A stretch of 22,994 nucleotides of DNA, taken from NCBI GenBank assembly GCA_934394595.1, contig CAKRRX010000037.1, positions 1-22,994 on the forward strand, in the 5' to 3' direction. Shown here piece by piece: positions 2,072 to 5,447 of the stretch (its first letter is position 1; every line of letters begins with the position of its first letter). The stretch is from an uncultured Blautia sp. (GTDB lineage Bacteria > Bacillota > Clostridia > Lachnospirales > Lachnospiraceae). Both the position numbers and the translations under genes were made by a program. The notes under the pieces are model-generated. The model was not told the origin of the DNA and did no database searches. It saw nothing but the letters and a program-made list of their open reading frames with translations.

Positions 2072-4621
2072 ATGAAAAGAACAAACCATCTATCATCTGT
2101 TTTGCGACTGCTGTTCTGCAGTCTGTTTTTTCTGTGTCTGACCATGTGTATCCATCCGGTCAGCACATTTGCACTTACCCCGGCTGCACAGGACAACCTC
2201 AGCGTCAACCTGCGCAGGTCCTCAGATCTGATTTCTACTTCCGATGGCTATATGCGGGTTTTCCATAAGACCAATTCCGTAGGGATCGAATATTACAATA
2301 GCAGCCTTCAGATAACAGGACGTAAGGAAATTGCCATGGAGCTTCCTCTCTGGGGCGGTTTTTATGCAGGTTCTGACGGGTATTATCTTATTGAAGGCCA
2401 GAATAATACTGCTGAAGACAACTCTGCAGAAGTAATCCGTGTCATCCGCTATGACACTAACTGGAAACGAAGCGGAGCCGCTTCCATCACCAGCAATCCG
2501 GATCTTTTTGGCGGCCAGGTTCGTTATCCTTTTCATTACGGCTGTGTGGAAGTCACGGAAAACAATGGAAAGCTCTTTATCGTTACCGGTCATGAGGGAT
2601 ATGTAGACCCATCAGTAGGACAGGGACATCAGGGATTTCTTATGATCCAGGTGGATCCATCTTCTATGACTGGAAAGATCGTCTCATGCGATCTGTGGCA
2701 CTCCTTCTCCCAGTACATCAAATCCAAAGATACCTATCTGTATGTACTGGAACAAAGCGAAGGTTCTCGCTGCACCAAGCTTACCAGATATGACAATTCT
2801 ACTTTGGAAAGAAAAACAATCGAATTATTCCCTTATGGCGGTTCCCGTACATCTGTCTGGGCACTTCCCTGCTATGCAAGTGTAGATGGTATGGCGGTTT
2901 CTTCTGATCATATACTGTGTATCGGTACTTCCATAGATCAGTCCAAGTACGATCAGGTTACTTCAGAAACACCTCACAATCTTTACCTTACCGTTACTCC
3001 CATGTCTGACTTTTCCAAGGAGGCCACTGTCACCAGACAGCTTACCAGCTATACAGGCGGTGGAAAAGGGTTTATGGGAGTAAAGATCACCAAGATCACA
3101 GATAACCGTTTTATGATTTCCTGGGAAGAGTATGACCCCAATACAGAGGAATCTGAATCCAAATATACAGATGACGACAACCTCTCTTCCAGCACCCTCC
3201 ATTATCTTTTTGTTGATGGAAAAGGAAATAGCCTCAGCAGGGAATTTACCACAGCAGCCCCTGTTTCAGACTGTCAGCCGGTAGTAAAGGACTCCAAAAT
3301 CGTTTACTATGCATCCGATATGAACACCTTAAACTTTTACTCCATTGATTCCAACAACGGCGCGTCTTCAAAAAAGACCTACCGGATTGCCGGAGAAAAT
3401 GCTACCTGGGATTTCAAAAACGGAACCCTTACTATTTCCGGACAGGGAGCCCTTTCTCTTTCAGAAGATGACCATCACCGTTTCCCAGTCTCTTCTACTC
3501 AGAATGGATTCGTTTTTTCCAATAGTACCTCATGGAAAGCGATCAAAAATCAGGTCAAAAAGGTTGTAATAAAATCCGGAATCACCAGCATTTCAGACAA
3601 TGCTTTCAACGGTCTTCCAAATCTGGAGGAAGTAGAAATCGAAAGGGGTGTACAAAAGATCGGCAAAGAGGCCTTTGCCTACTGTAGGAATTTGAACAAA
3701 GTGATCATTCCATCCAGTGTGAACTCCATCGGAGAGGATATTGTATGGATTGGTTCCTACTGGTACAGCGGTGATCACGTAAACTATGCAGCCATTTATG
3801 CGCCTTACGATTCTTATGCCATTACTTACGCCAAAAAGAATAGTCTTCGCTATGCCTGCGACATTTCTGCTGCAAAAGTAACCGGAATTCAGAAAAGCTA
3901 TACCTACACCGGATCCTCTATCAAGCCCAAAACAACCGTCACTCTTGGTAAGCAGAAGCTGACTTCCGGTTCTGACTATAAGGTCACTTACAGCAATAAC
4001 AAAAAAGCAGGGACCGCCACAGTCAAGATCACGGGAATCAACAATTACTATGGAACTATTTCCGTTACTTTCCAGATTGTATCCAAATCCACAGACAAGC
4101 CTCAGAATACAGCTGTACGCACCTTCAGTGATGCTCACAATGTTTACACAGTAAATAAAACCGGTTCCACTGTTACCTTAAAGAAAACCCGTTCCCGCAA
4201 TATTGTGACTGCCACCATTCCTTCTAAGGTGAAAGCAAATGGAAAAACCTACAAGGTCACCGCAATTGGCTACGGTGCTTTCAAAAACTGCCGGAAACTG
4301 AAGCAGGTAACCATTCCCGGAAATATTTACACCATCGGTTCTGGTGCTTTCCAGGGATGCAGTTCCCTTCGCACCCTGAAGATCGGTTCCAGAGTCTCTA
4401 CTATTGGAGCAAAAGCTTTTTATGACTGTAAGTCACTGACCTCTGTCACCATTTCCTCCAAGAAGCTTACTTCCGGTAATACAGGAAAGAATGCCTTCAC
4501 AAAAGCCGGACGGAATAATTACAGAAAACTGAGAGTCCGCGTTCCAAAGAGCAAGCTCTCCACTTACAAAAAACTCCTGAAGAGCAAGGGACTTTCTTCT
4601 AAAGCCAAAATCACAAAATAA
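2072..4621 (+). CDS. Secreted BspA-like leucine-rich-repeat protein
   Basis: 849-residue exported protein of unknown binding target. Residues 1-34 form a Sec signal peptide (positive start, long hydrophobic core, likely cut after STFA). Residues about 35-430 are a beta-rich region without a recognised motif, with repeated Y-x-L/I strands that suggest a propeller-like fold. At about 440-465 comes the 'ATWDF..GTLTISGQGAL' element typical of BspA-type proteins. A first LRR_5-type block (about 495-565: ISDNAFNGLPNLEEVEI, IGKEAFAYCRNLNKVIIP) follows. Then comes an Ig-like module (about 600-671, with GTATVKITGINNYYGT), and then a second LRR block (about 728-803: IGYGAFKNCRKLKQVTIP and two more units). 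The C-terminus is lysine-rich, with no LPXTG motif and no membrane helix, so it is probably released or held by charge. The start is set by the AGGAGAG site at 2061-2067. Family knowledge suggests a role in adhesion or binding; this is inference. Confidence 0.85.
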   Translation: MKRTNHLSSVLRLLFCSLFFLCLTMCIHPVSTFALTPAAQDNLSVNLRRSSDLISTSDGYMRVFHKTNSVGIEYYNSSLQITGRKEIAMELPLWGGFYAGSDGYYLIEGQNNTAEDNSAEVIRVIRYDTNWKRSGAASITSNPDLFGGQVRYPFHYGCVEVTENNGKLFIVTGHEGYVDPSVGQGHQGFLMIQVDPSSMTGKIVSCDLWHSFSQYIKSKDTYLYVLEQSEGSRCTKLTRYDNSTLERKTIELFPYGGSRTSVWALPCYASVDGMAVSSDHILCIGTSIDQSKYDQVTSETPHNLYLTVTPMSDFSKEATVTRQLTSYTGGGKGFMGVKITKITDNRFMISWEEYDPNTEESESKYTDDDNLSSSTLHYLFVDGKGNSLSREFTTAAPVSDCQPVVKDSKIVYYASDMNTLNFYSIDSNNGASSKKTYRIAGENATWDFKNGTLTISGQGALSLSEDDHHRFPVSSTQNGFVFSNSTSWKAIKNQVKKVVIKSGITSISDNAFNGLPNLEEVEIERGVQKIGKEAFAYCRNLNKVIIPSSVNSIGEDIVWIGSYWYSGDHVNYAAIYAPYDSYAITYAKKNSLRYACDISAAKVTGIQKSYTYTGSSIKPKTTVTLGKQKLTSGSDYKVTYSNNKKAGTATVKITGINNYYGTISVTFQIVSKSTDKPQNTAVRTFSDAHNVYTVNKTGSTVTLKKTRSRNIVTATIPSKVKANGKTYKVTAIGYGAFKNCRKLKQVTIPGNIYTIGSGAFQGCSSLRTLKIGSRVSTIGAKAFYDCKSLTSVTISSKKLTSGNTGKNAFTKAGRNNYRKLRVRVPKSKLSTYKKLLKSKGLSSKAKITK

Positions 4622-4633
4622 CAGGATTTCCCC

Positions 4634-4662
4634 TTGCATTCCACTACCAAATATGCTATACT
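4634..4662 (+). promoter_or_regulatory. Sigma-A promoter of queT
   Basis: TTGCAT (4634-4639) and TATACT (4657-4662) are separated by exactly 17 bases. The start point would be near 4669, so queT has a leader of about 200 bases. The same TTGCAT/17-base layout recurs at sstT. Confidence 0.65.
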
Positions 4663-4668
4663 CATGCC

Positions 4669-4860
4669 CGTTGAAAAGCCCGTAAAAATAAGGTCTTAAG
4701 CGGCTTTTCCGCCGATTCCCGGCGTAGGCCATATGCCTTCCGGTATATGCCTCCGCGGCATTCGTCAAATGTCCATGCAAGCATGGCCGCTTGACCAAAA
4801 GCCGCGCGAAAATGAATCGAGTGTTCGTGACCTTCCACTCGTAAAACAAAACTAGAGGAG
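4669..4860 (+). ncRNA. Structured 5' leader of queT; candidate cis-regulatory RNA
   Basis: Almost every base between the promoter and the queT ribosome binding site can be placed in stems. P1 pairs GCGGCTTTT (4700-4708) with AAAAGCCGC (4797-4805). It closes a junction holding P2 (CGCCG 4710-4714 with CGGCG 4720-4724), P3 (4727-4737 with 4742-4751, 10 pairs and one bulged C) and P4 (GTCAA 4764-4768 with TTGAC 4791-4795, with an inner CCATG/CATGG hairpin at 4773-4786). CGCGGC (4754-4759) can instead pair with GCCGCG (4801-4806), breaking P1. A separate hairpin P5 (CGAGTG 4818-4823, CACTCG 4836-4841) stands before the ribosome binding site. No hairpin here is followed by a U run, so control of translation would be more likely than termination. 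It does not match the preQ1-I consensus I know. It could also be a structured dispersed repeat. Confidence 0.5.
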
Positions 4861-4870
4861 AAAAAAGAAT

Positions 4871-5371
4871 ATGAAGAACAAGAGTACCCTGTTTCTGGTG
4901 CAGGCAGCGCTGATCGCAGCTGTCTATGTTGTATTGACACTGGTGTTCGCACCGTTTAGCTATGGAGAGATCCAGGTTCGAATTTCCGAAGCCCTGACCA
5001 TTCTTCCATTTTTCACACCAGCTGCCATTCCTGGCCTTTTTGTAGGCTGCATCCTTGCCAATCTCCTTGGCGGTGCTATCCCTCTGGATATTGCATTCGG
5101 AAGTATTGCCACCCTCATTGGAGCTGTATTCACCTACAAGCTTAGAGGCAGCAGCAAATGGCTTGCACCTGTTCCACCGATCGTAGCAAACGCAGTTCTG
5201 GTTCCATTCGTACTTCGCTATGGGTATGGAACTAATCTTCCCATTCCGCTTATGATGCTTACCGTAGGCGCCGGAGAGGTTATTTCCTGTGGAATCTTTG
5301 GAATGGTGCTTCTCACCGCACTTTCCAAATACAAGAATACTCTTTTTGGCAGACAGGCAGCTGCCAAATAA
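4871..5371 (+). CDS. queT: QueT-family queuosine-precursor (preQ1) transporter, ECF S component
   Basis: 166-residue, very hydrophobic protein with about five membrane helices, of the QueT/COG4708 family. By family knowledge it is the substrate-binding (S) subunit of an energy-coupling-factor transporter that salvages a queuosine precursor such as preQ1 for tRNA modification. Recognisable features are the N-terminal helix (LVQAALIAAVYVVLTLVFAPFSYG), then IQVRISEALTILPFF and GLFVGCILANLLGG, and a C-terminal helix with GAGEVISCGIFGM. The start ATG lies 10 bases after AGGAG (4856-4860). The shared EcfA/EcfT energizing module is not in the window, as is usual for group II ECF systems. It is transcribed alone, from its own promoter to a strong terminator. 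The long structured leader suggests regulation by a ligand, but which ligand cannot be read from the sequence. Confidence 0.9.
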   Translation: MKNKSTLFLVQAALIAAVYVVLTLVFAPFSYGEIQVRISEALTILPFFTPAAIPGLFVGCILANLLGGAIPLDIAFGSIATLIGAVFTYKLRGSSKWLAPVPPIVANAVLVPFVLRYGYGTNLPIPLMMLTVGAGEVISCGIFGMVLLTALSKYKNTLFGRQAAAK

Positions 5372-5395: not shown

Positions 5396-5447
5396 AAAAG
5401 GCCGTTTCCCGGTAATATCGTTTTTCGGGAAACGGCCTTTTTTATTT
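5396..5447 (+). terminator. Intrinsic terminator after queT
   Basis: A perfect 15-base-pair stem is formed by AAAGGCCGTTTCCCG (5397-5411) and CGGGAAACGGCCTTT (5426-5440), with a 14-base loop and a following T-rich tract (TTTATTTC). It starts about 25 bases after the queT stop. Confidence 0.92.

What the first reader, a model, noticed from the sequence alone, without database searches (positions are those of the whole stretch)
4669..4870. Four-way-junction leader RNA before a queuosine-precursor transporter gene
A good promoter (TTGCAT-17-TATACT) starts a leader of about 200 bases in which nearly all segments pair. A 9-base long-range stem (4700-4708 with 4797-4805) closes a junction with three hairpins. 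The 3' arm of that stem can instead pair with 4754-4759, giving a built-in switch. queT genes in other bacteria are often controlled by preQ1 riboswitches (known), but this leader does not look like the small preQ1-I fold, and I could not match it to preQ1-II or preQ1-III from memory. It may be a new sensor class, a divergent known one, or a structured dispersed repeat.
Basis: partly seen in the sequence, partly recalled or inferred. Interest (0 to 1): 0.7.

Follow-up and report, generated by a model that had tools for sequence, protein, structure and literature searches.

The report
preQ1-I riboswitch with added front domain

Summary
The leader is real but is not a new sensor class. Its 3' end (4813-4861) is a preQ1-I aptamer over the queT ribosome-binding site: RF00522 aligns below its cut-off (24 bits against 39), and 64 of 80 queT loci have the same core there. 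By published criteria it is class I type I. The 'four-way junction' upstream has two parts. (1) A conserved 5' domain: hairpins H1 and H2 and a pseudoknot from the H2 loop to the linker, covarying; its H1 loop AAGGUC is complementary to aptamer loop GACCUU. Of 57 strong domain hits in 397 genomes, 56 precede the aptamer and 48 also queT. (2) An insert (about 4725-4809) whose core is a dispersed structured repeat, found in 20 of 64 genomes of the Blautia group. In relatives the same leader is an integration site of tyrosine-integrase elements, which bring a new promoter and 5' leader. Inferred: AAGGUC clamps the aptamer loop and keeps queT on until preQ1 binds.

The parts
4634..4662 (+). promoter-like TTGCAT-17-TATACT
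   Evidence: sequence; the same layout by eye in L001-L003
4673..4709 (+). hairpin H1: 4673-4680 with 4702-4709; loop holds AAGGTC
   Evidence: 6 of 8 H1 pairs with two-sided changes in relatives; coordinates
4690..4695 (+). AAGGTC, complementary to aptamer loop 4829-4834 (proposed clamp)
   Evidence: 56 of 57 strong domain hits; pairing itself inferred, no covariation
4710..4724 (+). hairpin H2: CGCCG-ATTCC-CGGCG; loop 4715-4718 pairs with 4814-4817
4725..4809 (+). insert of about 85 bases absent from L002 and L003; a small hairpin, then the dispersed repeat
4751..4808 (+). core of the insert: member of the dispersed structured repeat (model R1)
   Evidence: 71.3 bits, the window being in the model; 20 of 64 genomes; a weak reverse-strand hit at 4754-4809 (25.9 bits) is the same hairpin read backwards
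4810..4818 (+). linker AAATGAATC; GAAT (4814-4817) pairs with the H2 loop
4813..4861 (+). preQ1-I aptamer: P1 4819-4823 with 4836-4840, loop 4824-4835, A-rich tail with CTA at 4852-4854
   Evidence: RF00522, 24 bits, E 0.0067 and 0.0025 in two searches, full length
4829..4834 (+). GACCTT of the aptamer loop, target of AAGGTC
4855..4860 (+). ribosome-binding site GAGGAG at the end of the aptamer tail
4871..5371 (+). queT, 166 aa
   Evidence: PF06177

Best explanation
A translational preQ1-I (class I type I) riboswitch controls queT. It sits behind a conserved 5' domain, which in this genome is interrupted by a dispersed repeat. Proposed working: without preQ1 the H1 loop AAGGUC pairs with GACCUU of the aptamer loop (positions 11-16 in the published numbering), keeping the pocket and the tail pseudoknot open, so the ribosome-binding site is free and queT is made. 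With preQ1, the aptamer hairpin, A-rich tail and ligand fold together, displace the clamp and block initiation. H2 and its loop-linker pseudoknot hold H1 near the aptamer; the insert sits in a tolerant place between H2 and the linker. Shown by comparison: aptamer, 5' domain with covarying H1, H2 and pseudoknot, repeat, gene. Inferred: ligand binding, the clamp pairing and its direction.
For: RF00522 over its full length with standard stem pairs; same core in 64 of 80 queT loci; RF00522 below cut-off in 8 of 8 loci searched permissively. Type I marks from PMC11625349 and PMC8752633 are met: UU after the P1 5' strand, UC before the 3' strand, CUA in the tail. 5' domain: 53 aligned, 90.0% of cells paired against 81.7% shuffled, 9 pairs with two-sided changes against 4.6; loop-linker pairing 53 of 53; 56 of 57 strong hits precede the aptamer. 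AAGGUC kept in leaders without H2 (L007, L031, L044, L241, L247, L249, L250); GACCUU in 76 of 76 queT leaders with AAGGUC against 30 of 53 without.
Against: AAGGUC and GACCUU never vary together, so the clamp has no covariation support. On the QueT tree the link between domain and GACCUU is not significant (6 independent pairs, median p 0.5). L220 keeps an H1-like hairpin with AAGGCU, L228 has H2 without H1. L035, L221, L236, L238 and the leaders with the second insert type lack the loop-linker pairing. The aptamer is below the RF00522 cut-off in the window and in 20 of 20 loci. No ligand was tested.
Confidence: 0.75

Rival explanations
1. The 5' domain is the conserved end of integrative elements that recombine at this leader; its hairpins serve recombination at DNA level or merely ride along, and do not regulate the aptamer.
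For: Leader copies with the domain lie at both ends of integrated elements; element ends carry matching GGACAAA repeats; domain presence changes 18 times on a QueT tree of 128 rows.
Against: Stems change on both sides with pairing kept, including a crossing loop-linker helix, as expected of folded RNA; the domain starts at the transcription start and ends at the aptamer; the window and the other 80 loci searched show no integrase match.
Confidence: 0.25
2. The H1 loop is a decoy of the aptamer's own A-rich tail: AAAAACCAAGG resembles the tail, so the A-run docks on P1 and AAGGUC takes the place of the tail strand, with or without ligand.
For: Likeness to the RF00522 consensus tail AUAAAAAACUAAGgA; the A-run before AAGGUC is invariant in four columns of 15 domains.
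Against: The tail's CUA is not kept in the H1 loop; the reading rests on likeness alone.
Confidence: 0.15
3. A separate sensor for another signal lies in the 5' domain, in tandem with the preQ1-I aptamer.
For: A conserved, covarying structure of its own.
Against: The most conserved loop is complementary to the aptamer; no Rfam family matches; in a survey of tandem riboswitches preQ1-I is listed among classes without tandem arrangements (PMC9481103, passage).
Confidence: 0.07

Closest known systems
preQ1-I riboswitch, class I type I (Rfam RF00522; Carnobacterium antarcticus example in PMC8752633)
   Same: P1 hairpin, 12-base loop with UU and UC marks, A-rich tail with CUA running into the ribosome-binding site, queT downstream
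   Different: below the Rfam cut-off; a conserved 5' domain of about 75 bases in front, with a strand complementary to the aptamer loop
preQ1-II and preQ1-III riboswitches (both known before queT; passages of PMC11625349)
   Same: control of queT in Firmicutes
   Different: no match to any Rfam family but RF00522 and a chance-level nqrA-II hit (13.6 bits, cut-off 55) in the permissive search
Attachment sites in tRNA genes (recalled, no call)
   Same: an element inserts within a structured-RNA sequence and restores it from its own copy
   Different: the target here is a riboswitch leader, and the element also supplies a new promoter and 5' leader

Membership tests
preQ1-I (RF00522) | score at or above the curated cut-off (39 bits) | tested here: not met
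   24 bits; 0 of 20 related loci reach it
preQ1-I (RF00522) | full-length alignment with all stem pairs | tested here: met
   model 1-45 of 45, no non-standard pair; 8 of 8 further loci aligned over 1-45, stem pairs not displayed
preQ1-I class I type I | UU after P1 5' strand, UC before P1 3' strand, CUA in tail (PMC11625349 section 4, PMC8752633 passages) | tested here: met
   letters at 4824-4825, 4834-4835, 4852-4854
preQ1-I class I type I | binds preQ1 (two molecules) | not testable with these tools
   no binding data
preQ1-I | before queuosine genes | tested here: met
   queT in the window; core before queT in 64 of 80 loci
preQ1-II / preQ1-III | match to their Rfam models | tested here: not met
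   no match at E up to 10 on 4600-4900
dispersed structured repeat (insert only) | many copies at other places, fold kept | tested here: met
   12 BLAST matches in G004; 20 of 64 genomes, 35 copies in G017; folds of two dispersed copies z -2.11 and -1.87

The most novel reading that the evidence does not exclude
The queT preQ1-I leader of Lachnospiraceae is at once a two-part regulator, in which an upstream domain clamps the aptamer loop with an AAGGUC strand, and the attachment site of integrative elements that carry promoter, 5' domain and aptamer core, so that integration swaps a new working riboswitch in front of queT.
Probability: 0.45. Interest if true: 0.8.

Novelty: new variant of a known kind. 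Interest (0 to 1): 0.6.

Why it matters
preQ1-I is known as one of the smallest riboswitches and folds alone. A widespread group of queT leaders with a covarying upstream domain facing the aptamer loop would show how a minimal sensor gains an opposing partner. A riboswitch used as an integration site would be a route by which mobile DNA replaces the regulation of a host gene, and could explain why the leaders change more often than the gene behind them.

Tried and rejected
New ligand class: unnecessary once RF00522 was found. The 9-base stem as a conserved helix: private to the window. Repeat as the whole explanation: rejected, because H1, H2 and linker occur in leaders without it. GGUCAC of the second H2 type pairing with GUGACC of the aptamer: only in leaders with T at loop position 10 (by eye). 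Covariation for the clamp: looked for, not found; the tree test was not significant. Free phage with the core: three exact-pattern scans of viral contigs gave 0; the one match in phage records (MT835501.1) precedes a queT gene among transporter-like genes and looks bacterial. Integrase near queT in the first 80 loci and the window: 0 matches at E 1e-5, 71 of 81 having 1.5 kb or more upstream. Literature, open-licence library only: 'preQ1 riboswitch'+'queT' 7 papers; 'preQ1-I'+'Lachnospiraceae'+'riboswitch' 0; three of four terms preQ1, riboswitch, upstream hairpin, Blautia: 3 papers; 'riboswitch'+'attachment site'+'integrase'+'attB' 16 papers, listing only, none by title about a riboswitch as a site; 'preQ1'+'integrase'+'attB' 2 papers, one listed, unrelated by title. 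I do not claim that it is not in print. Two of my notebook entries are superseded here: AAGGTC is at 4690-4695 (not 4691-4696), and only three of the five relatives named in note 9 have leader and queT directly next to the flank.

Full report
Check. Rfam gives nothing in the window at gathering scores. The permissive search of 4600-4900 gives RF00522 (preQ1-I) over its full length at 4813-4861, 24 bits, E 0.0067, and one chance-level hit, nqrA-II at 13.6 bits; the alignment shows no non-standard stem pair.

The aptamer is general. A scan with QueT gave 80 loci (101 relatives were found and the best 80 kept). A core pattern (12-base loop with at most 3 substitutions, 5-base stem with at most 1 mismatch) occurs before queT in 64 of 80. 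Of the 16 without it, L029 and L057 begin at queT and hold no leader, and L022 shows a degenerate form by eye. None of 20 loci reached the RF00522 cut-off, but 8 of 8 loci searched permissively hit RF00522 before queT at 23.8-32.3 bits. Loop and tail letters fit class I type I as described in PMC11625349 (section 4 whole, section 9 part 1 of 2, other passages) and PMC8752633 (passages). In that numbering the loop is U6 U7 C8 G9 U10 G11 A12 C13 C14 U15 U16 C17.

The 5' domain. Of 72 distinct leaders held at that point, 24 have AAGGTC upstream of the aptamer, among them 21 of 21 with hairpin H2. A covariance model of the domain, R2 (75 positions, the last six of them the start of the aptamer stem, so adjacency is slightly favoured), matches 66 of 397 family genomes at E <= 0.01, 74 places. 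All 57 places with E <= 4e-6 were examined: 56 have AAGGTC, 56 are followed by the aptamer, 48 also by queT. The nine without queT are two contig ends (L171, L179), one copy without aptamer (L214) and six orphans. Of the 17 weaker places 13 were fetched: six precede the aptamer (L220, L241, L243, L247, L249, L250) and seven do not, several looking like terminators by eye. In the 64 genomes of the Blautia group 26 have a match at E <= 0.1; the weak ones there show no aptamer.

Covariation. On 53 insert-free domains (51 distinct rows; the alignment was fitted to the model, which favours H1 and H2 but not the pseudoknot), 90.0% of cells pair against 81.7% shuffled, 9 pairs have two-sided changes against 4.6, and the score is 0.240 against 0.138, each reached by 0 of 500 shuffles; the number of pair types is reached by 3 of 500. 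These shuffles ignore relatedness. H1 has 6 of 8 pairs with two-sided changes, H2 2 of 5. The H2 loop and the linker occur as ATTCC or ATTTC with GAAT or GAGT, GTTCC with GAAC, and GTCAC with GTGC. Allowing one unpaired loop base, four pairs form in 53 of 53 (212 in sum, shuffled mean 174, 0 of 2000 as high). Outside this set the pairing is missing in L035, L221, L236 and L238 (first insert type), in the leaders of the second insert type (linkers GGCG or GGCA), in L216, and in leaders without H2; L165, an orphan, has three of four.

The clamp. AAGGUC matches loop positions 11-16, which include A12 of the published pocket ceiling (C8-A12-U32), so this pairing and the bound pocket should exclude each other. 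For it: conservation, retention of AAGGUC in leaders without H2, and GACCUU in 76 of 76 queT leaders with AAGGUC against 30 of 53 without. Against it: no covariation, and a tree test with 6 independent pairs in which the loop follows the domain 2.1 times on average, never opposes, median p 0.5. It is the likeliest mechanism, not a shown one.

The insert. Between H2 and the linker the window has about 85 bases that L002 and L003 lack. BLAST with this stretch found 12 places in G004, the genome of L004 (Blautia schinkii), whose own queT leader lacks it, and one weak place in G008; 9 of 11 genomes had none. A model of 11 copies, R1, finds the repeat in 20 of 64 genomes, 35 copies in G017 and 19 in G004. 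R1 also matches the insert of 13 of 13 leaders that looked alike by eye (three of them, with the window, are in the model) and 0 of 7 others tested. A second kind of insert, a hairpin ending CGCTnAGGCG, is seen by eye in L012, L225, L227, L237 and L243, and L006 and L235 have an insert in the H1 loop.

Integration site. Seven of 136 leader copies are not followed by queT; six of them share the sequence to AAAACAAAACT and then diverge, while L213 diverges earlier, after the stem. In six genomes orphan and queT copy lie in the same orientation on one contig, about 3.1 (G220), 6.2 (G328), 6.5 (G480), 6.9 (G297), 12 (G279) and 15.5 kb (G203) apart, partly computed from coordinates. In G297 the stretch holds a tyrosine integrase (PF00589) and an AntA antirepressor, with paired GGACAAA repeats at both ends. 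In G203 it holds sugar-metabolism-like genes and only an integrase remnant, by eye. Of 27 integrase places in 25 of 299 genomes, 5 loci hold an aptamer copy, all among the 9 places with at least 57% identity to the query; 4 of those 9 and all 18 others do not, though one of the four, L269, lies about 2 kb from a queT leader by the coordinates. The pair in G228 is not in the same orientation; pairs in G288, G431, G054 and G207 lie on different contigs.

Empty sites. G461 shares the host flank with G297 at 98% over 1.2 kb; there the insert-bearing leader runs straight into queT, whereas in G297 that leader ends in the element and queT has a second, insert-free leader. For the group of G288, 15 of 16 genomes hold the flank and 12 loci were looked at: in three the leader and queT are next to it (L299, L301, L303), in two about 1.3 kb away (L300, L302), two are occupied (L298, which is G288, and L304), L308 has queT behind an altered hairpin, and four show no leader or queT. 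The exchange point is unresolved: stem letters of G297 and G461 suggest upstream of P1, those of G207 the A-rich tail. The window itself shows no integrase match.

Verdict. Known: a preQ1-I riboswitch for queT. New as far as these searches reach: the conserved, covarying 5' domain facing the aptamer loop, the dispersed repeat inside it, and the use of the leader by integrative elements.

Noticed in passing
L252 1059-7981; L253 1601-4655; L254 1880-17397; L262 with L314; L304 with L318; L265 with L320: The queT preQ1-I leader is an integration site: element-like DNA lies between an orphan leader copy and the queT copy, with an integrase near the orphan in several cases; G461 and relatives of G288 show the site empty.
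   Followed up: partly
window 4751-4808; R1 hits: Dispersed structured repeat of about 57 bases or more, 20 of 64 genomes of the Blautia group, up to 35 copies; what moves it is unknown.
   Followed up: partly
L012, L225, L227, L237, L243; L006 and L235: A second hairpin insert at the same place of the leader, and inserts in the H1 loop, by eye.
   Followed up: no
window 5396-5445, + strand: Strong inverted repeat followed by T run after queT, a likely terminator (seen in the sequence; not scanned).
   Followed up: no
MT835501.1 7663-12709 (L321): A record filed as a bacteriophage holds a preQ1-I leader with AAGGTC and a queT gene beside transporter-like genes; it looks like bacterial chromosome.
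   Followed up: partly
L058 4093-4197: TPP riboswitch (RF00059, 69.9 bits) about 0.6 kb downstream of the queT match.
   Followed up: no
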